This document shows, in pieces, positions 14,918 through 52,643 of a DNA stretch of 64,000 bases. The translations under genes were made by a program, and so were the position numbers. This DNA is from an uncultured Verrucomicrobia subdivision 3 bacterium (GTDB lineage: Bacteria; Verrucomicrobiota; Verrucomicrobiia; Limisphaerales; UBA11358): NCBI GenBank assembly GCA_903858275.1, contig CAIOIC010000109.1:1-64000 (forward strand), given 5' to 3'. A model generated the notes under the pieces. The model did not search any database, was not told where the DNA came from, and saw only the letters and a list, made by a program, of their open reading frames with translations. Every line of letters begins with the position of its first letter. Position 1 is the first letter of the stretch.

Positions 14918-17900
14918 CTAATCATCACCGCCACCGCCGGTATTTTTCTTTTCCCAACTGCGCCGGTTTTTTTCCGGCAGCGACTTGTCCACGACGGCGT
15001 AAAATGTTTTATCGCCGAACAGCCGGTTGGCGGCATGTTCCAGCGCCACCGATGGCGCGACACCAAAGCGGTCATGCGTCTGGATAAAGATTGTTCCACC
15101 TTCGGGGCGCATGAAACAGAGGTATAGCGGGCATTTGCCTAGATGCGCGGCGACAAGTTCCGCGACTTTGGCCATATCGTCCGGCTGCAAATGCGCCATC
15201 GGCAGACGCAGGTGAACCTGCTTGGTGTATTTCTTCGGCGCATCTTCCAGCGGTATGATTTCCTGCGGAAATATCTTCGGCTTATCCTCACCGGTGCTGA
15301 CTTCGCCAATGACGAGCAATGCCTTGTTCGGCTCCAGCAGCGGACGATATTTGTCATAGTCGTTCATCACGAGCAACTGCACCGAGCCATCCAAATCCTC
15401 AAGGGTCACCATCGAATATGGCTTGCCGGATTTTTTGGAGACGCCGTGGCTCACGACGGAAATCATACCGCCAATGCGGGTCATGCTGCGGTTTGCCACC
15501 GTCTCAAGCTGCGCGGTATTGTGCAAGGAGAACCGCTGCAACAGCGGCGCAAGCGGCGTTAACGGATGTCCGCTCACATAGAAACCCAGCAGCTCTTTTT
15601 CGTGGGCGAGCAGTTCATGCTGCGGCCACTCCTGCAGATTACTTTCGCGTTCCGGCATCGGCGGGGCTTTTTCCTCGATGGCCCCGAAGAGCGAGCTTTG
15701 ACCTTTTTGCTTGTCCGACAGAATGCTCGCCGCCCGCGCCAGCGTGCGCTCAATCTGCGCCGTCAAGGTCGCGCGCGTCTGGCCGAAACAGTCGCAAGCG
15801 CCAGTTTTGACGAGTGCTTCCAAGGTCTTTTTACCAAGGGAGCGTCCATCCACCCGCTCGCATAGTTCGGAAAGCGTCTTGAATTTTCCGCTTTCACCCC
15901 GCGCTTTCAGGATCGTCTCGACGGCGCCTTCACCCACGCCCTTGATCGCCGCCATGCCGAAGCGGATGGCTTTGCCGTTTTGCGCCGGGGCGAAATAAAC
16001 ACCACTTTCATTAACGTCCGGCCCGAGCACCTCGATACCCACTTCGCGCGCCTCGGCGATGTATTCGCTTAATTTTTCCGTCGCCGCCATATCGTTCGTC
16101 ATCATGGCGCAGTAGTATTCGACCGGGTAGTTCGCCTTAAGATACGCGGTCTGATAGGCGACGATGGCGTAAGCGGCAGCGTGCGACTTGTTGAAGCCGT
16201 AGCCGGCAAATTTTTCGAGCAAGTCGAAAATCTGGTTCGCCTTGGTCTTGGGAATGTTGTTTTTCTCGTGACAGCCCTTGACGAAGGTCTCGCGCTGCTT
16301 CGCCATTTCTACAAGATCCTTTTTGCCCATCGCACGACGCAGCAGATCCGCGCCGCCAAGCGTGTAGCCAGCAAGCAGCTGCGTTGCCTGCATCACCTGC
16401 TCCTGATAAATCAGGATGCCGTAGGTCTCCTTGGAAATCTGTTCGAGCAGCGGATGCTCGTATTCCACTTTGATTTCACCATGGCGCCGTTTAACGAAAT
16501 CACCAATTAATTCCATCGGGCCGGGACGATACAACGCCACGAGCGCGGTGATGTGCTCGATGGAGCTGATCTGAAACTTTTTGCACAGTTCGCGCATCCC
16601 GCTGGATTCCAGTTGGAACACGCCCAATGTTTCCGCACGGTTCAACAGGTCGTAAGTTTTTTGGTCATCGAACGGCAGGTGATCAATGTCAATGGTGACA
16701 CCTTGCGTGCGCTTGACCATTTCACAGGTGTTGCGGATGACGGTGAGCGTCTTCAAACCGAGGAAATCCATCTTCAGCAAACCGAGTTTGCCGACGGGGT
16801 TCATCGCATATTGCGTGACGAGCGTGCCGCTTTCATCCAGCTTGAGCGGCAGGAGGTTCACGAGCGGTTCCGGGCCGATGACGACGCCTGCGGCGTGCAC
16901 ACTAGCGTTACGCGTGAGATCTTCGAGGATGAACGCGGTGTCAATCAACTCGCGGGTGACATCTTCGTTCTCGTAAGCCTCCTTCAGTTCCGGCACCTGC
17001 TTGAGCGCCTTCGTCAAATCCATCTTCAGGTCGGCGGGAATCAATTTTGCGAGCCGGTCGCCGTCGCCGTAGGGCAAACCCATCACGCGTCCGACATCGC
17101 GCACAACGGATTTCGCGCCCATCGTGCCGAAGGTGATGATCTGCGCCACGGCATCGCGTCCATATTTTTCACGGACGTATTCAATCACATCCGCGCGGCG
17201 GTCATCGGCAAAATCAATGTCAATATCCGGCGGGCTGACGCGCTCAGGATTCAGGAAGCGTTCGAACAGCAACGCGTAGCGAATGGGATCCACGTTCGCG
17301 ATTTCCAATAGATAGGTAACGATAGAGCCGGCGGCGCTTCCGCGGGCCACGCAGGAAATGCCCTTGCTGCGGCCGTATTGCACAAAGTCCGCGACGATGA
17401 GGAAATACGAGATATAGCCCTGCATTTCGATGACCTTGAGTTCGACTTGCAGGCGGTCGATGACCGTCTGAATGGCTTGCTCCTGGTTAGGCTGATTGGG
17501 ATCGAAGGTGGGCAACCGTTTGGGCTCATCAACGCCAGTGACAATGAATTCTTTTCCCTCCGCCTCCGCGTGAATCGTGTAGCGACGAAACAAACCTTCC
17601 GCGAGCAGATGTCGCAGGTAGCCGTCGCGCGTGAAATGTTCCGGCGGATTGAAAACCGGATAAAAACGCGTGTCGCCCCCTTTGGGAAAAGGAATTTCAA
17701 GATTACATTTTTCAGCTACCTCCAACGTGTTTAACACCGCTTCCGGCACCTCGGCGAAACGCGCTTTCATTTCCTCCGCGCTGCGCAGAAAAAACTGCTC
17801 CGGCACATAGCCCGCACTCATGCGCTTCGGGTCACTCAACATGGACTGCGTGCCGATGCAGACCAGGCAGTCGTGCGCGTGCGAGTGGCCTTTTTCGATA

Positions 17901-42214: not shown

Positions 42215-44065
42215 ATGTGCGGCATCATTGGATACGTTGGAAAAAAAGCGGCCTCGCCCATCCTGCTGGAAGGCTTGCGGCGGCTGGAATACCGCGGCTA
42301 TGACAGCGCAGGCGTGGCGGTTTTGGACAAAGCAACCCTGACCGTCCGTAAAAAACTAGGTAAGATTGACGAGGGCATCGCGCGCCTGCTGAAGGCCGAA
42401 CCCGTCACCGGCACGCTTGGCATTGCCCACACCCGCTGGGCCACGCATGGCGTTCCATCCGATAAAAATTCCCACCCGCACCTCGACGCCTCCGGCAAAA
42501 TCGCCGTCGCCCACAACGGCGTCATCGAAAACTACGACTCACTCAAGCAGAAGCTGATTCAAGCCGGGCACAAGTTCAAATCCGACACGGACACAGAAGT
42601 GCTCGCGCATCTTATCGGCGATTATTATGCCAAACGCGCCGGCAAGAACGGTGATTCGCTCACCCAGGCCGTCTGCGACGCGCTGCGCGAAGTCATCGGC
42701 ACCTACGGTCTGGTGGTCATCTGCACGGATTTTCCGGACATAATGGTGGGCGCGCGGCGCGGTTCGCCGCTCATCATTGGGATCGGCAAAGATGAAAATT
42801 TTATTGCCAGCGACGCCAACGCCATCGTGGCGCACACCAAAAAAGTGATTTACCTGAACGACTACGACGTGGCGACCGTCACCGGCGACCGGTTCGACGT
42901 GCAGAATCTCGGCACGGAAACAGCCAACGTCCAGATCAGCAAGCTGGAATTTTCACAGGAGGACGCGGCGCGCGGCAAGCACGCGCATTTCATGCTCAAG
43001 GAAATCTACGAGCAGCCGCAGACGGTGCTGAACGCGCTGCGCGGGCGTTTGGATTTTGAAGGCGCGACGGCGAAGTTCGGCGGCCTGAACATGACGGCGG
43101 CGGAACTGCGGAACATTGACCGCATCGTCATCGCCGCCAGCGGCACGAGCTGGCACGCGGCGCTAGTAGGCGAATATTTGATCGAGGAACTGGCACAAAT
43201 TCCGGTCGAGGTGGAGTTCGCGCACGAGTTCTGTTACCGGAATTGTCCGCTGGAAAAAAACACCGTGCTGCTGGTGCTTTCGCAGTCCGGCGAAACGGCA
43301 GACACCCTCGCCGCACTGCGCGAAGCCAAGCGGCGGGGCCACCGCGCGCTGGCCATCGTCAACGTCGTCGGCAGCACCATCGCGCGCGAATCGGACGGCG
43401 GTATTTATATGCACGCCGGACCGGAAATCGGCGTCGCCTCGACGAAGGCATTTGTCTCGACCCTTTCCATTTTAACGCTGCTGGCGGTTCATCTCGGTCG
43501 GCTGCGCCATCTTTCCGCCAAGCGCGCGCTGGATGTTTTGCACGGATTGGAAGCCTTGCCAAAACAGATTGAAAAGTTACTGACGCAAAATGATTTGCTG
43601 AAAAAGCTGGCAAAGAAATATGCGAAGGCGGAGGACTTCTTTTTTCTCGGCCGCGGCTACACGTTTCCGATTGCGCTTGAAGGCGCACTGAAGCTGAAGG
43701 AAATTTCCTACATCCACGCCGAGGGCTATTCGGCGGCGGAGATGAAGCACGGGCCGATCGCACTGATTGACGCCAAGACCCCGACGGTTTTTCTCGTGCC
43801 GCAGGACGCGATGTATGAGAAAACGATGGCAAATCTCGCCATGATCCGCGCCCGCAAAGGCCCGATCATCGCGGTGGCAACCGAAGGCGACAAGGCCACA
43901 AAAAAAGTCGCGGAAGACATGATTTACCTGCCAAAGACGCTCGACTTGCTGAATCCGATTCTCGCCAGCGTGCCGCTGCAATTGTTCGCCTATCACATCG
44001 CTGTCGCGCGCGGCTGCGATGTGGACAAGCCCCGCAACCTGGCCAAAAGCGTGACCGTGGAATAA
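42215..44065 (+). CDS. glmS: Glutamine--fructose-6-phosphate aminotransferase
   Basis: MCGIIGYVGKKAASPILLEGLRRLEYRGYDSAG ... AVARGCDVDKPRNLAKSVTVE. Confidence 0.98.
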   Translation: MCGIIGYVGKKAASPILLEGLRRLEYRGYDSAGVAVLDKATLTVRKKLGKIDEGIARLLKAEPVTGTLGIAHTRWATHGVPSDKNSHPHLDASGKIAVAHNGVIENYDSLKQKLIQAGHKFKSDTDTEVLAHLIGDYYAKRAGKNGDSLTQAVCDALREVIGTYGLVVICTDFPDIMVGARRGSPLIIGIGKDENFIASDANAIVAHTKKVIYLNDYDVATVTGDRFDVQNLGTETANVQISKLEFSQEDAARGKHAHFMLKEIYEQPQTVLNALRGRLDFEGATAKFGGLNMTAAELRNIDRIVIAASGTSWHAALVGEYLIEELAQIPVEVEFAHEFCYRNCPLEKNTVLLVLSQSGETADTLAALREAKRRGHRALAIVNVVGSTIARESDGGIYMHAGPEIGVASTKAFVSTLSILTLLAVHLGRLRHLSAKRALDVLHGLEALPKQIEKLLTQNDLLKKLAKKYAKAEDFFFLGRGYTFPIALEGALKLKEISYIHAEGYSAAEMKHGPIALIDAKTPTVFLVPQDAMYEKTMANLAMIRARKGPIIAVATEGDKATKKVAEDMIYLPKTLDLLNPILASVPLQLFAYHIAVARGCDVDKPRNLAKSVTVE

Positions 44066-44094
44066 TCCTTCAATGATACCGCGGTTGTTGTTGA
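44011..44094 (+). repeat. 84-bp exact direct repeat, proximal copy (native glmS tail)
   Basis: cggctgcgatgtggacaagccccgcaacctggccaaaagcgtgaccgtggaataatccttcaatgataccgcggttgttgttga, identical to 49651-49734. Confidence 0.97.
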
Positions 44095-44459
44095 TGCATA
44101 CGGCACGACGATGGCCGCGCCTTGCGGGAAACTTACGCTGGCTGGTAGTCGATGGACTTGGGATAACTGACACAACGCAAACTCAGCGTAACTGCCGGCG
44201 GTATAAACCGAGTCGCCCGGATTGAACGCACTCACCTCACCGCGACCGCTTCAACAATCCCTGCCGCATCGCTACCTGGCGTGTAAAGCAACGCCGGTTT
44301 GCGGGCGTAATTTCCGGAACGGATGTAAGTCTCGACCGGATTAACCCCGACGGCACGCACGCGAACAAGAACTTGCCCGACATCTGGCTGTGGAACTGGC
44401 AGCTCCAGCAAACGCAACACGTCAGGTTCACCGAATTGATCTACGCGAATGGCTTTCAT
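44095..44459 (-). pseudogene. NADPH:quinone reductase / zinc-type ADH-like, 5' fragment, frameshifted and truncated
   Basis: [72 protein letters not shown] / frameshift / SAFNPGDSVYTAGSYAEFALCQLSQVHRLPASVSFPQGAAIVVPYA, ending at the 84-bp repeat. Confidence 0.88.
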
Positions 44460-44575
44460 GTTTGCTATCGGTTCACGGATAATCACACGGTGCTCAACCT
44501 CACTCAGTTTCATAAGGGAAATTATGATTTCACATTTGAATTGCCCAAGGTAAAATGCTATGATAATTTTTCCAG

Positions 44576-44686
44576 ATGAAGTCCAGTTTGTCAGGCTTTG
44601 CTAAATTATTTTTCAAGGCGGTTGGCCGCAACAAAAATAAAGCAGGCGTGATTCGCTTGTGCCAGGCGGCTTTCAAAAGAGCCTAA
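44576..44686 (+). CDS. Possible 36-aa basic small ORF upstream of the MFS gene
   Basis: [36 protein letters not shown]; stop lies 8 nt before MFS ATG. Confidence 0.3.
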
Positions 44687-44694
44687 AACAGAAA

Positions 44695-45951
44695 ATGAAA
44701 ACGGCACCAACTTCACAATCCGGTGCTGTCCCGCATTGGTATAAGTGGGAAATGTTGGTGGTTCTCTGGATTGCTTTTTTCCTCCATCAAGGCTGTCGCC
44801 AGATTTACAATTCAGTGATCCCGCTCATCAAAACTGATCTCGGCTTGACCGATGTTCAGGCTGGCTTGGTCAGTTCCATTTTCACCTTGGTTTATGGTGT
44901 TCTGGTGCCGGTGGCGGGTTTGGTCGGCGACCGGTTTCCCCGCAAATGGATTATCTTTGCAAGTCTGTTGGTTTTCAGTAGTGGAACGTTGCTGACGGGG
45001 TTTAGCACCAGTCTCGTGATGATGGTGCTGCTCATCAGTATCACTACCGGCGGCGGCGAGGCGTTTTTTTATCCTTCGACCACCTCGCTGCTCGCGCAGT
45101 TTCACGAAAAAACCCGGGCGCTGGCATTGGGGCTTTTGCAAACCGGCCTTTACATCGGGATCACCGTCAGCGGGCTGCTGGCGGGCTGGATTGGCCAGAC
45201 ACACGGCTGGCGCAATTCGTTTCTGGTCTTCGGTGGAGCGGGCATTCTGTGGACAATCGTGATTGCCTTGCGTTTGCGCAACTCGCCGTTGCCGGCAGTA
45301 AGCACTAAGAGTACGATGGATAAAATCCCTACCCGAGAAGTTTTGTCCTATCTAATGCGCCGGCCAACGGTCTGGATGTTGAGTCTGGCCTTTGGCGGCA
45401 TGGTGTTTGTGGGGGTAGGCTATATGACGTGGATGCCGACGTTTCTCTACGAAAAGTTCCATCTCTCCGTAAAAGATGCCGCACTAAACTCGATGCTCTA
45501 CCACTTTAGCTTCGCCTTCCTTGGCGTGCTGGTGGGAGGGCGGGTTTCCGACGGGTTGGCGGCGCGACGACCAACAATCCGGATGGAAATTGGAATTCTC
45601 GGCCTGCTGCTCGGCGCACCGTTCATCTGGTTGATGGGCGCTTCGACAAATCTGACCATTGTCTATGTGGCGCTGGCGGGTTTTGGATTCTTCCGCGGGT
45701 TGTATGACTCGAACCTCTTCGCCGCCCTTTATGATGTGATTCCCGCGCGTTATCGTTCCTCGGCCACCGGGCTGATGCTCAGTTGCGCATTCACCGTGGG
45801 CGCGACATCGCCCGTTCTGCTGGGCTATCTGAAACAGCACATTAATCTCGGTATAGGTTTATCAGCGTTGGCGTTCGTTTATTTTTTCGGGGCAGCCTTG
45901 CTCTTCATCGCGTTGAAAGTCTTTTTTGCAAGAGATTATGTCCGCGAATAA
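44695..45951 (+). CDS. MFS transporter
   Basis: 12-TM pattern; DLGLTDVQAGLVSSIFTLVYGVLVPVAGLVGDRFPRKW, GRVSDGLAARRPTIRMEIG. Confidence 0.93.
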   Translation: MKTAPTSQSGAVPHWYKWEMLVVLWIAFFLHQGCRQIYNSVIPLIKTDLGLTDVQAGLVSSIFTLVYGVLVPVAGLVGDRFPRKWIIFASLLVFSSGTLLTGFSTSLVMMVLLISITTGGGEAFFYPSTTSLLAQFHEKTRALALGLLQTGLYIGITVSGLLAGWIGQTHGWRNSFLVFGGAGILWTIVIALRLRNSPLPAVSTKSTMDKIPTREVLSYLMRRPTVWMLSLAFGGMVFVGVGYMTWMPTFLYEKFHLSVKDAALNSMLYHFSFAFLGVLVGGRVSDGLAARRPTIRMEIGILGLLLGAPFIWLMGASTNLTIVYVALAGFGFFRGLYDSNLFAALYDVIPARYRSSATGLMLSCAFTVGATSPVLLGYLKQHINLGIGLSALAFVYFFGAALLFIALKVFFARDYVRE

Positions 45952-46002
45952 TCCTGATTCAACACACATGGATTCAACCATGCGGTTAATGAAACTCTTC
46001 AT

Positions 46003-46761
46003 ATGAAACTGGCAAACATGACCTGGCCTGAAATGGCCAAGCTGAAACGCGATCTTGTCGTTGTCCATCCGATTGCCGCGCTGGAACAACATAGCCGCCA
46101 TCTGCCCTTCTTTACGGATGCAATCCTTTGCGGTGCGGTGGCGGACGGCGTCGAGGCCACGCTGCCCAGCGATGTGTTGCTGCTGCCGGTGCAGTGGCTC
46201 GGGGCCTCCACCCATCATCTCGGCATGGCGGGTACCGTGAGCGCAGAAAACGAGACGCACATCAAACTTATCGCCGAACCGATGCGCTGCCTGCTGCGAC
46301 ACGGGTTCAAGCGGCAGTTCGTGCTTAACGGCCACGGCGGCAACAAGGATGGTTTTCACCTAGCCCTGCGCCAGCTCATCCTGGAGTTCCCCGACGCGCA
46401 GCTTTTTGGGGCGAGTTACTGGGAAGTAGCGACCGATGAAATTGCCAGGATTTTACAAGGCCCGATCAAGGCCGTCGGTCACGCATGCGAGTGCGAGACG
46501 GCGATGATGCTGGCCATCCAGCCGGACTTGGTGCGCCGCGACGCAATCCACAACGACCTGCTGGCCACGCGCCAGCCAAAGACTTTACGCGGCGTTTACG
46601 TCGCCCCTGACATGAAAGTACAAACCGAACACGGCGGCGTGGGCTACGCGGAACTCGCCACGGCGAAGAACGGGAAATTGCTGCTCGCGGCCGTTGTAAC
46701 ACGAGTCGTGGAAGTAATCCGGGCGACGCAGGTCATAAAACGGCGCGGCAAACGCAGTTGA
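46003..46761 (+). CDS. Creatininase family amidohydrolase-like protein
   Basis: VVHPIAALEQHSRHLPFFTDAILCGAVADGV, FVLNGHGGNKDGFHLALRQLILE, GHACECETAMMLAIQPDLV. Confidence 0.9.
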   Translation: MKLANMTWPEMAKLKRDLVVVHPIAALEQHSRHLPFFTDAILCGAVADGVEATLPSDVLLLPVQWLGASTHHLGMAGTVSAENETHIKLIAEPMRCLLRHGFKRQFVLNGHGGNKDGFHLALRQLILEFPDAQLFGASYWEVATDEIARILQGPIKAVGHACECETAMMLAIQPDLVRRDAIHNDLLATRQPKTLRGVYVAPDMKVQTEHGGVGYAELATAKNGKLLLAAVVTRVVEVIRATQVIKRRGKRS

Positions 46762-46768
46762 ACCAAAT

Positions 46769-47959
46769 ATGAGAATCATTGACCTCAAAGCACGGTGTGT
46801 GGCAATCCCGTTGGATTGCCAGTTGCGGCACAACACAGGCGTCCATCCGGGATATTTCCTGCGGACGATCTTGGAAATCATTACCGACGAAGGCATCGTC
46901 GGCCTCGGCGAAGTCGGCGGCGGGGACCAGCGCGGTGCGTTGTTGAAACTCAAGCCGCGCATCGTCGGCCTTGATCCGTTCCACCTTGAAGTCATCAAAC
47001 TCAAGGTTCTCCGCAGCATTTATTACATGTCCAACTCCAGACTCTACGGCGCGATCGAGATCGCCTGCCTCGACATCCAGGGCAAGGTGCTGGGCCGACC
47101 GGTAAGCGACCTGCTCGGTGGCGCGGTGCGAGATCGCGTGCCGATGATGGGCGAGCTAAGCTGGCGCTATGATCGTCCCGGCGGCGGCGACGACACCTGC
47201 GCCGAGGATCTCGTCGAACAAGCCGTGGAACTGCATGAGACGCTCGGCGTGAACACGGTGAAAATGAAAGGCGGCGTGGTGGATCCGGATACGGAGGTTC
47301 GCGTAATGGAACTTTGCCGCAAACGGATGGGGCCGAACTTCAACCTGCGCGTGGACGCCAACGGCGTTTGGTCGGTGGCGACGGCGGTGCGGATCGGCCG
47401 GCGGTTGGAGCCGCTCGGCCTCGAATACTTTGAAGACCCGGCGTGGGGCATCGAAGGACTGGCGGCGGTGCGGCGGCAGGTGCGTATTCCGATTGCGACG
47501 AATATGTATCCAGCGAAGTTTGACGACCTCGGTCCGGCGATCCGGCTCGACGCGGTGGACATCGTGTTGACCGATCTGCACTACTGGGAAGGTCCGCGCG
47601 GAGTGAAGGATCTTTGCGCCGTGCTGCGGACTTTCAATCTCGGGGTCGGCATGCACAGCGGCGCGGAATTCGGCATCGAGATGTCGGCCATGCTTCACAC
47701 CGCCTGCACGATTCCCGAAATGCACTTCGCCGGCGACGCCGTCTATAACCATCTCACCGACGACATCATCGTCGGCGGCAAGATGCGTTATGAGGGCGGC
47801 TGCCTGCGCGTGCCGACCGGCCCTGGCCTCGGCGTCGCGCTCGACGAGGAAAAGATGGAAAAATACGAGCGCTACTACGCGGAGAAAGGCGACTACTACG
47901 CACGTTTCCACCAAGATCCGCGCCGGCCGGACTGGTATCCGATTGTGGGCGGAATGTAA
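46769..47959 (+). CDS. Mandelate racemase/muconate lactonizing enzyme family (enolase superfamily)
   Basis: IACLDIQGKVLGRPVSDLLGG, VNTVKMKGGVVDPDTEV, NLRVDANGVWSVATAVRIGRRLEPLGLEYFEDP. Confidence 0.92.
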   Translation: MRIIDLKARCVAIPLDCQLRHNTGVHPGYFLRTILEIITDEGIVGLGEVGGGDQRGALLKLKPRIVGLDPFHLEVIKLKVLRSIYYMSNSRLYGAIEIACLDIQGKVLGRPVSDLLGGAVRDRVPMMGELSWRYDRPGGGDDTCAEDLVEQAVELHETLGVNTVKMKGGVVDPDTEVRVMELCRKRMGPNFNLRVDANGVWSVATAVRIGRRLEPLGLEYFEDPAWGIEGLAAVRRQVRIPIATNMYPAKFDDLGPAIRLDAVDIVLTDLHYWEGPRGVKDLCAVLRTFNLGVGMHSGAEFGIEMSAMLHTACTIPEMHFAGDAVYNHLTDDIIVGGKMRYEGGCLRVPTGPGLGVALDEEKMEKYERYYAEKGDYYARFHQDPRRPDWYPIVGGM

Positions 47960-47967
47960 GGCTTGCT

Positions 47968-48726
47968 ATGAAAACTAATCAGTTAAAAGATAGGGTCGCC
48001 ATTGTGACGGGAGCTTCGCGCGGCATCGGCCGAGCCATCGCGATCGGGCTAGCGGGCAAAGGCGCAGCCATCGTCGTCAACTACGCCACCAAGTCGGCCG
48101 CCGCCGAGGAAGTCGTCAACCAAATCCTAGCCAGAGGCGGCCAAGCGGTCGCCGTTCAGGCTGATATGAAAGACCTCGCGCAACATGAGCGGATCGTGGC
48201 GGCGGCCTGCAAGCATTTCGGCAGAATTGACATTCTGGTTAACAACGCAGCCATTACACACAGGCACCCGTTTCAGGAAGCGACCGCCGCCGCTTGGGAT
48301 GAAATCATGGGGGTTAACTTGAAAGGCGTCTATTTTTTAACTCAAGCGGTGGCGCGCGTCATGGCCCCGCAACACACGGGCAAAATCATTAACATCTCCA
48401 GCGTCCACGACACGCGGGCCATGATGAACAACTCGATCTACTCCATTAGCAAAAGCGGCCTTGTGATGCTGACGAAGTCGCTCGCGCTCGAACTCGCGGA
48501 AAAGGGCATACAAGTGAACTGCATTTCGCCTGGCGCAATCGTGACTGACGAAACCCGCGACCGACTGTCAGACCCCGCATATCGTGACCGCGTCCTAGCG
48601 AAAATTCCGAGCCGCCGCGTCGGCGAGCCGGAGGAAGTGGTCGGCGCCGTTGTGCTACTGGCGTCGCCCGAATCAGATTACATCACCGGAACCACCCTCT
48701 ATGTGGATGGCGGCATGTTGTTGTAA
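47968..48726 (+). CDS. Short-chain dehydrogenase/reductase
   Basis: RVAIVTGASRGIGRAIAIGLAGKGAAIVVNYA, LVNNAAITHRHPF, YSISKSGLVMLTKSLALELAEKGIQVNCISPG. Confidence 0.95.
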   Translation: MKTNQLKDRVAIVTGASRGIGRAIAIGLAGKGAAIVVNYATKSAAAEEVVNQILARGGQAVAVQADMKDLAQHERIVAAACKHFGRIDILVNNAAITHRHPFQEATAAAWDEIMGVNLKGVYFLTQAVARVMAPQHTGKIINISSVHDTRAMMNNSIYSISKSGLVMLTKSLALELAEKGIQVNCISPGAIVTDETRDRLSDPAYRDRVLAKIPSRRVGEPEEVVGAVVLLASPESDYITGTTLYVDGGMLL

Positions 48727-48749
48727 AAACATTCAGCGAAAGAACTCAT

Positions 48750-49283
48750 ATGGCATTTGACATCAAACAGCGCGGCAAACTGACCTACTACTATCGCGCC
48801 AGCCGACCCGTATTCTCCTTCGTCGTCACGGAGGCGATGCCGGATGGCGATCTCCGGGTCTATCTCGCAGGACTGACCGGAGGCGAATCGGCCACGCGCA
48901 ATCTCGGCCTGTCTGACACGGCCACGATGGATCCCGACCGGGAGATTCCGCGCGTGTTCGAGACGTGGGAAGACTGGCTAAAGGAAGCGGGTGTATGCAA
49001 TTCGATCACGGAACTGGATTTCATCGAAATGCATGTTTTTGGTTGCCAACCGAAGTCGCCCAGTCCGCTCGCCGATCCCGCCGGCTATGCCGCCGAAATC
49101 GAGCGCTTGCGCACGGCCTACGGACGCGCCTACGCCGCTTACTTCCATGACCATCTGCCGGAACACGGCCTGCCCGCGCGGTTCACCGTTCATGTTGTGG
49201 ACGTGCCAGACAAGGTGGCGTCCTATGAGTTTTACACAACGGCGCTCCGGCAAAAAAACCGGACCGGAATAAAATCCATCTGA
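48750..49283 (+). CDS. Uncharacterised protein in catabolic operon
   Basis: Intact 177-aa ORF MAFDIKQRGKLTYYYRASRPVFSFVVTEAMPDGDLRVYLAG..., 24 bp after the SDR gene; no family recognised. Confidence 0.75.
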   Translation: MAFDIKQRGKLTYYYRASRPVFSFVVTEAMPDGDLRVYLAGLTGGESATRNLGLSDTATMDPDREIPRVFETWEDWLKEAGVCNSITELDFIEMHVFGCQPKSPSPLADPAGYAAEIERLRTAYGRAYAAYFHDHLPEHGLPARFTVHVVDVPDKVASYEFYTTALRQKNRTGIKSI

Positions 49284-49364
49284 ACACGGCTAAAAAACCT
49301 CTACGGGAAGGCTTGGGTTGTTGGGGGGGCGTATTCCGAGATAATGCATTACCAACCAAACGCC

Positions 49365-49650
49365 ATGAATTTGAAACCAAAGATCACGACACTCGTTATC
49401 GGCCCAATTTTCCCGAAAGCCCATGTTTCGATTCAAGCGGCAAGCTCTGGTTCACAGAATGTAAAGCAGGCTGCCTGACGTGTTTTGCCGACGGAAAACT
49501 GGAGCGCCTTGCCGCCGGTGGCAAAATCGACTGCCTGTCATTTGATGCCGCTGACGACATTTGGTTCACCGATCCGGAAAGCCACAAGTTACGCAAATAT
49601 CTCCGGCGGGAACAGTGCTTCGAGGGCGTGCTGGAGAGAGCGGGGGCGAA
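49365..49650 (+). pseudogene. SMP-30/gluconolactonase-like 5' fragment, frameshifted and fused to duplicated glmS tail
   Basis: MNLKPKITTLVIGPIFP / frameshift / ESPCFDSSGKLWFTECKAGCLTCFADGKLERLAAGGKIDCLSFDAADDIWFTDPESHKLRKYLRR then GANG|CDVDKPRNLAKSVTVE*. Confidence 0.82.
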
Positions 49651-49734
49651 CGGCTGCGATGTGGACAAGCCCCGCAACCTGGCCAAAAGCGTGACCGTGG
49701 AATAATCCTTCAATGATACCGCGGTTGTTGTTGA
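49651..49734 (+). repeat. 84-bp exact direct repeat, distal copy of glmS tail
   Basis: Identical to 44011-44094 base for base; flanks diverge immediately on both sides. Confidence 0.97.
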
Positions 49735-49743
49735 AGTAGAGAA

Positions 49744-49783
49744 ACAAAAGAATTTGTTACTAGACAATATTCTTTGTAACTAG
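49744..49783. repeat. Two adjacent 20-bp imperfect tandem repeats / hairpin
   Basis: ACAAAAGAATTTGTTACTAG | ACAATATTCTTTGTAACTAG (15/20); also AAAGAATTTGT..ACAATATTCTTT hairpin. Confidence 0.7.
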
Positions 49784-49910: not shown

Positions 49911-52643
49911 ATGAAAATTTGCTGTCTTGTTTTATTCGCTGTGCTCCTCCCCAACATGGTTTCGGCTGCTGATTTATTCATTGCCACCAGCGGTGATGAC
50001 ACCAATCCCGGCACGAAAGCAAAACCGTTTGCAACCTTGAATCGGGCGCGCGCTGAAACCCGCAAGTTCAAGGAACAAGGAGTGACGGTGTGGCTGCGCG
50101 AGGGCACCTATTGCTTTGAGCAGTCGTTTGAATTGAACCAGGCGGATGGAGGTGCTGAAAACCGGCCGGTCGCCTATCGCGCCTTTCAGAACGAGACCGT
50201 TCGGCTGGCGGGTGGCCACCAGATTTCAGCGAGCGACTTCAAACCCGTCACGGACCCTCAAATTCTCAACCGCATCGATGAATCGGCGCGAAACAAGATG
50301 CTTCAAGTCGATCTCAAGGCCATGGGAATCACAAATTTCGGCAGGTTCCCGGATGTTTATCGAGGAAACGCTCCCCTTTTGGAACTCTTCTTCAACGGCC
50401 AACCGATGCCGCTAGCGCGCTGGCCAAACGACGCCTGGATGACCGTCGCACGGACGGTTGCATCCGGGGCAAAACCCTCGCCCGCCAACCCCAAGGGCAT
50501 ACCCAGCACGTTCCTGTATCATGGCGACCGACCGCAGCGGTGGACGAAGGCGGACGAAGTAATGCTTCATGGGTATTGGTGCCAAGACTGGTTTGACGAG
50601 ACCCTGAAGGTCAGGACGATTGACACCGTAGCGCAGACCATCAAATTCGCCGCGCCCGCCGCGTATGGCTTGGGCAGCGGTCTGCGGCGCTACTATGCCC
50701 TGAATCTGCTGGAAGAAATTGATATGCCCGGCGAATGGTATCTGGACCGCAAGACGGGCATTTTATATTTCTGGCCGCCGGCGCCGCTGGCGCGAGCACA
50801 GATGTGGGTCTCGACGCTGGCTAAACCGGTTATCTCAATAAAAGACGCTTCGCATGTGACGCTGCGTGGCCTAACGGTCGAATTTTCGCAAGGCGACGGG
50901 GTGGTCATTGAGGGCGGCCAAGAAAATCTTATTGCCGGCTGCACACTACGCAATCTCGGCGGCATCGCGGTTACTATCAAGGATTTGCCGGGGGCACTGG
51001 GCGGTGGACGGCATAACGGCGTGACCGGCTGCGACATCTCCGAAGTGGGCCGCGAGGGTATCATGCTCAATGGTGGCAATCGAAACACACTTGCCCCGGC
51101 AAAACATTTTGCGGTTAACAACCATATCCATCATTTCGGCCGGTTGATGCGGACCTACGCCGGAGCCATCAGTGTGGATGGGGTTGGCAATCTGGTTGCC
51201 CATAACCTGCTCCATCATGCCCCGCACTCGGCTGTGTTCTTCAAGGGCAACGACCATGTCATCGAATTCAACGAAATGCACCACCTGATGCTGGAGACGC
51301 ACGATGCGGGCGCGATTTATATGGGGCGTAACTGGACCTGCACGGGAAACATGATCCGCTACAACTTCATCCATCATCGCGGCGCGTTTGGCATCGGGTC
51401 GTCCGGAGTCTATCTCGACGACGGAAATGCCGGGAATACAATCTTGGGGAACGTCTTTTACAAGGGAACGTGGGCGACCGTGCTCGGCGGCAGCCGTAAT
51501 ACCACGGTGGCAAACAACATCTTTATCGACTGCGAGCCAGCCGTGAACGTGGACGATCGGGCCTACGTCCACATGGGTGAGAAGGGAACACTTAATCTCA
51601 CCCTGGCGCAGATTCCATACCAACAACCGCCGTGGAGCACTCATTATCCCTACCTCGTCAACATTCTTGAGGATGAACCGGGCGAACCAAAATACAATGT
51701 CGTGACGCGCAATGTTCGCGTTGGCGGGACGTGGACTTGGCTGATTCGCCGCAAGGATGAGACGAAGCCGCCATTGGACCAGCTAATTAAGATCAAAGAC
51801 AACTGGATTGACGGTGATCCCGGATTTGTGGATGCCAAAAATCTCAACTTCAACCTCCGTGACGACTCCCCGGTATATCGGAAGATACCCGGTTTTCAGA
51901 AAATCCCGTTCGATCAAATCGGGTTATATCAGGATGAACTTCGGGCGACCTGGCCCATTTCCGGGGCAAACGAGGCGCGCCAGGAGCCGATGCTCGCCGA
52001 CAAAATTATTTATCCGGCCAAGGTGTTGTGGGGAAAGCCGGGACCGATTCAAGCGTATCGGCTTGAGAAGCCCATCGCCCTCGACGGCAAGGAAGGCGAG
52101 GGAGAATGGCCGAAAACGGGCAACGGAAAGCCCGCAGTCATCGAGCAGGCGCCGGATCGGACGAAGGTGACTGAAACCACGCCGAGGAGCTATGCGCGGG
52201 CTGCGTACGACGATGAATTTCTTTATGTGCTGCTCGTGAATCGTGTGCGCGACGTGAAAGCCCTGACCAGGGGCAAAGAATGGGGCAGGGACGATGGGGT
52301 TGAGATTAGTTTCAAGGATCCGGCCAGCAAGGGACCGGTCCACGTCATCCACGGTTTTGTTTCCGGAATGGTCGAAGCTTCCACCGTGGCGGGCTCAGGC
52401 TTGGAACAGAAAAAACGAATTGAGGACTCCGGCTTGAAACTAGCAACCTCCGTCGGCGACAACTATTGGACGGCGGAATTCCGCCTTCCGCTGAGGACGA
52501 TCGGCATCATGCCGGTGAAGGACAGGAAACTGCAGTTTAATATCGCCACCCGGCAGGCAGCCGCGAATACGCCGTTAGTCTGGACGGGCACCTTTGCGCA
52601 AAACTGGAAAGTCGAGGATGCGGGCGAGTTGGTTTTCAAATGA
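49911..52643 (+). CDS. Secreted right-handed beta-helix protein with C-terminal CBM9-like domain
   Basis: Signal MKICCLVLFAVLLPNMVSA; FIATSGDDTNPGTKAKPFATLNRARAE; repetitive NxIxxxxG motifs; C-terminal YARAAYDDEFLYVLLVNRV..GVEISF. Confidence 0.87.
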   Translation: MKICCLVLFAVLLPNMVSAADLFIATSGDDTNPGTKAKPFATLNRARAETRKFKEQGVTVWLREGTYCFEQSFELNQADGGAENRPVAYRAFQNETVRLAGGHQISASDFKPVTDPQILNRIDESARNKMLQVDLKAMGITNFGRFPDVYRGNAPLLELFFNGQPMPLARWPNDAWMTVARTVASGAKPSPANPKGIPSTFLYHGDRPQRWTKADEVMLHGYWCQDWFDETLKVRTIDTVAQTIKFAAPAAYGLGSGLRRYYALNLLEEIDMPGEWYLDRKTGILYFWPPAPLARAQMWVSTLAKPVISIKDASHVTLRGLTVEFSQGDGVVIEGGQENLIAGCTLRNLGGIAVTIKDLPGALGGGRHNGVTGCDISEVGREGIMLNGGNRNTLAPAKHFAVNNHIHHFGRLMRTYAGAISVDGVGNLVAHNLLHHAPHSAVFFKGNDHVIEFNEMHHLMLETHDAGAIYMGRNWTCTGNMIRYNFIHHRGAFGIGSSGVYLDDGNAGNTILGNVFYKGTWATVLGGSRNTTVANNIFIDCEPAVNVDDRAYVHMGEKGTLNLTLAQIPYQQPPWSTHYPYLVNILEDEPGEPKYNVVTRNVRVGGTWTWLIRRKDETKPPLDQLIKIKDNWIDGDPGFVDAKNLNFNLRDDSPVYRKIPGFQKIPFDQIGLYQDELRATWPISGANEARQEPMLADKIIYPAKVLWGKPGPIQAYRLEKPIALDGKEGEGEWPKTGNGKPAVIEQAPDRTKVTETTPRSYARAAYDDEFLYVLLVNRVRDVKALTRGKEWGRDDGVEISFKDPASKGPVHVIHGFVSGMVEASTVAGSGLEQKKRIEDSGLKLATSVGDNYWTAEFRLPLRTIGIMPVKDRKLQFNIATRQAAANTPLVWTGTFAQNWKVEDAGELVFK

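What the first reader, a model, noticed from the sequence alone, without database searches (positions are those of the whole stretch)
44011..49734. 5.6 kb accessory block bracketed by an exact 84-bp duplication of the glmS 3' end
Bases 44011-44094 and 49651-49734 are identical over 84 bp (last 17 codons of glmS, stop and 29 bp downstream) and diverge immediately outside the repeat. Between them lies a catabolic block (MFS, creatininase, enolase-superfamily, SDR, unknown) with no integrase or transposase visible. Known background: the glmS 3' coding end is the Tn7 TnsD target, with insertion about 25 bp past the stop, close to where this repeat ends at +29. Tn7 makes only a 5-bp duplication and does not recreate the glmS tail. 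The pattern fits an integrated circle or att-like site carrying its own glmS tail, or an undescribed gene-tail-targeted insertion route.
Basis: partly seen in the sequence, partly recalled or inferred. Interest (0 to 1): 0.85.

Follow-up and report, generated by a model that had tools for sequence, protein, structure and literature searches.

The report
Rearrangement scar at a Tn7-like docking site
A sugar-catabolism gene block next to the essential gene glmS sits between two identical copies of the glmS tail, and the edges of those copies suggest an accidental, microhomology-driven rearrangement at the place where Tn7-like transposons insert, rather than a new kind of integrating element.

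Summary
The 84-bp repeat is real: 44011-44094 and 49651-49734 are identical and are the only two copies in the 3.66-Mb MAG. What sets its edges argues against an integrase att site. The block is cut off mid-gene at both ends: a quinone-oxidoreductase (QOR) pseudogene at 44095 and an SMP-30-like pseudogene at 49650. Intact paralogs of both lie on another contig of the same genome, so both junctions can be read. The right junction (SMP-30'|glmS tail) falls on 5 bp, CGGCT, shared by the SMP-30 paralog and glmS. The repeat's right edge (+29 past the glmS stop) is exactly where a Tn7-like transposon end begins in the distal copy: AGTAGAG plus two 19-bp TnsB-like sites. It matches a complete 208-bp mini-Tn7-like element elsewhere in the genome. 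So the repeat is one attTn7 segment, and the block lies between two copies of it. Most likely a break or exchange at an occupied attTn7 was repaired by illegitimate, microhomology-guided joining or template switching. That step is inferred. No recombinase lies in the block or is listed on this contig, no TnsB/TniQ is found in the genome, no empty-site relative is held, and no read data were available. One unrelated genome has other orphan glmS tails, so recurrence is not excluded.

The parts
42215..44065 (+). glmS, intact
   Evidence: ORF; 79-93% identical orthologs in relatives; upstream pfk/hisB order kept in nearly all relatives read
44011..44094 (+). R1, proximal copy of the 84-bp repeat (attTn7 segment: glmS tail, stop, 29 bp)
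44011..44015 (+). CGGCT in glmS: 5-bp microhomology with the SMP-30 gene; left edge of the repeat
44090..44094 (+). GTTGA, last 5 bp of R1; same 5 bp precede the Tn7-like end at R2 (candidate target duplication)
44095..44459 (-). QOR', N-terminal part of a quinone oxidoreductase (ADH_N), truncated at R1 and frameshifted
   Evidence: PF08240; paralog on own contig C106, 90% aa over residues 1-72
44659..45951 (+). MFS transporter
   Evidence: PF07690
46003..46761 (+). creatininase-family protein
   Evidence: PF02633
46769..47959 (+). enolase-superfamily (mandelate racemase/MLE-like) enzyme
   Evidence: PF13378/PF02746; 72-94% identical in many phyla
47968..48726 (+). SDR oxidoreductase
   Evidence: PF13561
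48750..49283 (+). protein with no Pfam match, conserved next to enolase/SDR in Verrucomicrobiota
49365..49650 (+). SMP-30/gluconolactonase-like gene, frameshifted and truncated at R2
   Evidence: homologs; paralog on C106, 71% aa
49651..49734 (+). R2, distal copy of the 84-bp repeat (orphan glmS tail)
49735..49783 (+). Tn7-like right-end remnant: AGTAGAG terminus (expected TGTAGAG) with TnsB-like sites at 49743-49761 and 49763-49781
   Evidence: 89% match to the mini-Tn7-like element at C28:78374
49911..52643 (+). beta-helix/CBM9 protein, first gene right of the Tn7-like end

Best explanation
The 84-bp repeat is one attTn7 segment (glmS tail plus 29 bp) left on both sides of a 5.56-kb catabolic fragment by an illegitimate, microhomology-guided rearrangement. 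It is not the att pair of an integrase. Shown: the right edge of the repeat is the terminus of a Tn7-like transposon end present only at the distal copy, and the left edge lies on a 5-bp match (CGGCT) between glmS and the SMP-30 gene that the distal copy truncates. Inferred: the chromosome broke at (or exchanged at) the Tn7-like terminus downstream of glmS. The broken glmS..GTTGA end was joined to, or primed synthesis on, a QOR...SMP-30 gene cluster. The join then returned to the glmS tail of an unbroken copy at CGGCT, 84 bp upstream of the exit point, re-copying R and the transposon end. A one-sided homologous exchange between an empty and an occupied attTn7 allele, with the same CGGCT joint, would leave nearly the same product.
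For: Exact 84-bp identity with sharp edges. Both ends of the block are mid-gene truncations. CGGCT shared at the SMP-30/glmS joint, read from the C106 paralog GCGACCGGCTCAAGC versus block GCGAACGGCTGCGATG versus glmS GCGCGCGGCTGCGATG, with a further CAAGC/CCTGGC match 10-30 bp on (chance about 0.001-0.006). Tn7-like end starting at 49735: two adjacent TnsB-like sites, the second a perfect match to the 19-bp pattern derived from the C28 element. A complete 208-bp element with the same ends, two close sites on one end and three spaced sites on the other, flanked by TTGA, is at C28. Position +29 and the close-spaced end facing glmS agree with the Tn7 target (about 20-25 bp past the stop, orientation-specific: PMC2918618). 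Tn7-like repeats also follow glmS at about +21 in relative G027.
Against: The order of events is inferred from one genome. The parental SMP-30 and QOR genes are not available, so the microhomology is read from 71-90% identical paralogs. No other end of the Tn7-like element is on the contig, no TnsB or TniQ family member is found in the genome, and no donor copy of the block exists in the assembly. An orphan glmS tail in G079 starts within 1 bp of the same position.
Confidence: 0.55

Rival explanations
1. Two-allele version: the block is native next to an empty attTn7 (glmS-R-QOR'...SMP-30), and DNA from a strain with an occupied attTn7 (glmS tail-R-Tn7-like end) was joined to SMP-30 at CGGCT by homology-facilitated illegitimate recombination after uptake, or by unequal exchange.
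For: Automatically puts the right edge of R at the transposon terminus; needs one illegitimate joint, at the observed microhomology. Region downstream of glmS differs among the relatives read.
Against: Needs QOR' to have been truncated, independently, at exactly the Tn7-like insertion point. No relative shows QOR or the block beside glmS.
Confidence: 0.2
2. Site-specific integration: R1 and R2 are attL/attR of a recombinase-less integrative element (CIME-like) whose attP carries the glmS tail, mobilised in trans.
For: Long direct repeat restoring a gene 3' end; seven Phage_integrase matches elsewhere in the genome. G079 has an orphan glmS tail beginning within 1 bp of the same base, with only synonymous differences from its native tail, beside a toxin-antitoxin pair.
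Against: No recombinase in the block or listed on the contig. Block ends are broken genes, not element ends. The left arm of the possible palindromic core around 43994-44023 is absent at R2. Edges explained by microhomology and a transposon terminus. Two of 320 genomes of the order have an extra tail in the strict search; two other double-hit genomes simply have two full glmS genes.
Confidence: 0.12
3. Assembly or library artefact: a chimeric joint between two strains or loci at the shared 84 bp in a metagenome assembly.
For: The genome is a 136-contig assembly; an 84-bp repeat can be mis-threaded; CGGCT-type microhomology is also typical of amplification chimeras.
Against: Even a mis-threaded graph needs real reads for the SMP-30'|R joint; the contig continues 39 kb to the right of R2 and block and flanks have similar GC.
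Confidence: 0.1

Closest known systems
Tn7 / Tn7-like transposons at attTn7 (glmS 3' end)
   Same: Transposon end with tandem TnsB-like sites starting 30 bp past the glmS stop, close-spaced end toward glmS, preceded by a 5-bp candidate target duplication
   Different: Only one end remains, terminal T changed to A, no TnsB/TniQ genes found; Tn7 itself duplicates 5 bp, not 84 bp of target including the glmS tail
Homology-facilitated illegitimate recombination / microhomology template switching
   Same: Addition of kilobases with a GC-rich 5-bp microhomology at one joint and duplicated target sequence
   Different: Not observed experimentally here; donor molecule unknown
CIME / genomic island with gene-3'-end att sites
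   Same: Cargo flanked by direct repeats that duplicate the end of a conserved gene, no integrase inside
   Different: Edges lie inside host-type coding genes at a microhomology and at a transposon terminus; no second element at this site with the same edges in the genus

Membership tests
Tn7-like element at attTn7 | TGT...ACA termini with repeated TnsB-binding sites | tested here: met
   One terminus only: AGTAGAG (T to A) and sites at 49743, 49763; matches both-ended C28 element
Tn7-like element at attTn7 | Insertion about 20-25 bp past the glmS stop, fixed orientation | tested here: met
   End begins 30 bp after the stop of the R2 tail; close-spaced (right-type) end faces the glmS tail (PMC2918618)
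Tn7-like element at attTn7 | Second end and matching 5-bp duplication | tested here: not met
   No second end on the 89-kb contig
Tn7-like element at attTn7 | TnsB/TniQ genes present | tested here: not met
   PF06527 and PF09299: none in G000; TnsA, TnsC and TnsD not searched
Integrase-type island / CIME | Flanking direct repeat at a gene 3' end | tested here: met
Integrase-type island / CIME | Recombinase in the element or a related autonomous element using the same att | tested here: not met
   None in block or listed on contig; no lone glmS tail in viral contigs
Integrase-type island / CIME | Empty site in close relatives | tested here: inconclusive
   Relatives lack the block's enolase, but none shares this downstream sequence
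Homology-facilitated illegitimate recombination / template switching | Microhomology at the illegitimate joint | tested here: met
   CGGCT, read from a paralog
Homology-facilitated illegitimate recombination / template switching | Identified donor molecule | tested here: not met
   No second copy in assembly; nearest enolase elsewhere 94% aa

The most novel reading that the evidence does not exclude
The glmS tail is itself a mobile recombination site in Verrucomicrobiota: small recombinase-less cassettes (catabolic block here; toxin-antitoxin pair in G079) are added behind glmS, each bringing a tail copy that starts at the same base, through an unidentified enzyme acting in trans or through Tn7-like excision repair.
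Probability: 0.1. Interest if true: 0.8.

Novelty: new member of a known kind. Interest (0 to 1): 0.35.

Why it matters
It shows how a catabolic cluster can land beside an essential gene without any integrase, and suggests that transposon docking sites such as attTn7 can also be sites of illegitimate DNA capture. Repeats of this type can be mistaken for att sites in genome surveys; reading both edges against paralogs separates the two.

Tried and rejected
Searched for more copies of R in the genome (two only) and for lone tails in 320 genomes of the order and 388 drawn from the phylum: only G079 has true orphan tails; G329 and G444 have two full glmS genes. The single extra tail seen in G004 lies at a contig end, from a divergent second glmS copy. 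Viral contigs with the tail all hold glmS running to a contig or locus end or a full glmS; one of them carries Mu-like phage genes (L165). Integron/cassette reading dropped: no attC-like structure seen by eye. Foreign-composition test uninformative: block GC 0.566 versus window 0.569. Literature searches for duplicated glmS tails found nothing relevant.

Full report
OBSERVATION. The repeat is exactly as reported: 84/84 identical bases at 44011-44094 and 49651-49734, spacing 5640, and no third copy in the 3.66-Mb, 136-contig assembly. The contig runs to 88,987 bp, so the window edge is not a contig edge.

WHAT LIES BETWEEN. The block holds MFS, creatininase, enolase-superfamily, SDR and one Pfam-orphan gene. 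Homologous combinations occur in many Verrucomicrobiota and other phyla, so the cargo is ordinary. Among 49 genus genomes only this one has the enolase at E <= 1e-100. The ends are the informative part. Next to R1 is the first third of a quinone oxidoreductase on the minus strand (44095-44459), with a 1-nt frameshift. Next to R2 is an SMP-30/gluconolactonase-like gene (49365-49650), also frameshifted and cut at R2. The own genome has a second, diverged cluster on contig C106 with intact QOR (90% aa over residues 1-72), MFS (66%), enolase (78%), SDR (52%) and SMP-30 (71%). That makes both joints readable.

RIGHT JOINT. The C106 SMP-30 reads GCGACCGGCTCAAGCGCCCCAATGACCTGGCG. The block reads GCGAACGGCTGCGATGTGGACAAGCCCCGCAACCTGGCC. 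glmS reads GCGCGCGGCTGCGATGTGGACAAGCCCCGCAACCTGGCC. The first five bases of the repeat, CGGCT, are therefore shared by SMP-30 and glmS, and weaker similarity (CAAGC.CC, CCTGGC) follows. A run of five by chance at a joint has probability of about 0.001 to 0.006. This is the signature of an illegitimate joint. The caveat is that the parental SMP-30 gene is represented by a paralog.

RIGHT EDGE OF THE REPEAT. The first 171 bp after R2 were searched in the own genome. Bases 2-48 match contig C28 at 89%. There they form one end of a 208-bp element: TGTAGAGAGACAATAGAGTTTGTTACT...AGTTACAAACATTATTGTCGCTCTACA, flanked by TTGA on both sides, with 19-bp sites GACAATAnnnTTTGTnACT at +8 and +28 on one end and more widely spaced sites on the other. 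This layout, and the resemblance to the Tn7 terminus (own knowledge of the Tn7 ends), identify a mini-Tn7-like element. The window copy has the same two close sites at 49743 and 49763, and its terminus is AGTAGAG, one base off TGTAGAG. Tn7 inserts about 20-25 bp past the glmS stop, in one orientation, with a 5-bp duplication (PMC2918618). Here the end starts at +30, right-type end toward glmS, preceded by GTTGA. R1 ends with the same GTTGA but continues into QOR'. So R is the attTn7 segment from 81 bp inside (toward glmS) to the last base before the transposon. No second end is found on the contig, and no TniQ or Mu-transpos_C (TnsB) match is found in the genome, so this is a dead remnant. Downstream of glmS, relative G027 shows three tandem 20-bp Tn7-like repeats after a TGT at about +21, and G026 and G007 show weaker candidates (read by eye). 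That suggests glmS is a used attTn7 in this genus.

MECHANISM. Shown: both repeat edges have a local cause, microhomology on one side and a transposon terminus on the other. Inferred: a break at the Tn7-like terminus (for example after excision) or an exchange between an empty and an occupied site was resolved by joining or copying a QOR-to-SMP-30 fragment and re-entering the glmS tail at CGGCT, 84 bp back. One event of this kind gives the duplicated R, the two broken genes and the absence of a recombinase. The donor was probably foreign or has been lost, since no second copy is in the assembly. The 100% identity of R1 and R2 suggests a recent event, although both broken genes already carry frameshifts. 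The template-switch version and the two-allele exchange version cannot be separated with the data in hand.

ALTERNATIVES. An integrase att pair is not supported: no recombinase in the block or listed on the contig, and block ends that are host-type genes. No viral contig carries an isolated tail. The best argument for recurrence is G079 (another family): behind its glmS lie a decayed tail (T2) and a clean orphan tail (T3). T3 starts within 1 bp of the window repeat and differs from the native tail only at synonymous positions, with a toxin-antitoxin pair between T2 and T3. I could not relate T3 to a Tn7-like end. Surveys found no other orphan tails in 320 genomes of the order or 388 genomes drawn from the phylum. 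An assembly artefact remains possible without reads, but any assembly path still needs reads across the SMP-30'|R2 joint.

VERDICT. Real observation, mostly explained, modest novelty: a remnant Tn7-like insertion site with an illegitimate rearrangement scar. The novel reading (a glmS-tail cassette route) is kept at about 10%.

Noticed in passing
L189:1500-1707 (own contig C28:78374-78581): Complete 208-bp mini-Tn7-like element (MITE) inserted at the stop codon of an rsgA-like GTPase gene, flanked by TTGA; no TnsB or TniQ family member found in the genome.
   Followed up: partly
L174 (G079:C135), reverse-strand 15173-15223 and 15875-15929: Two orphan glmS tails behind the native glmS, one decayed and one with only synonymous differences, enclosing a likely toxin-antitoxin pair in about 0.7 kb.
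   Followed up: partly
L011 (G027), L014 (G026), L018 (G007), first 150 bp after glmS: Tandem repeats resembling Tn7-like right ends about 21-29 bp past the glmS stop in genus relatives; clear in G027, weaker in the others.
   Followed up: partly
L165 (IMG/VR 3300036819_000241): Contig beginning in a Verrucomicrobiota glmS tail and continuing into what read as Mu-like phage genes (DDE transposase-like, MuB-like ATPase, replicative helicase; judged from sequence only), suggesting a prophage close behind glmS.
   Followed up: no
glmS in G001, G003, G016, G020, G030, G031, G035, G045: GlmS carries an insertion of roughly 25 residues near residue 145 in several relatives (two separate tblastn segments).
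   Followed up: no
own contig C106:59,100-71,200 (L186, L187): Second, diverged copy of the same kind of catabolic cluster (QOR, MFS, SDR, SMP-30, enolase) in the genome.
   Followed up: yes
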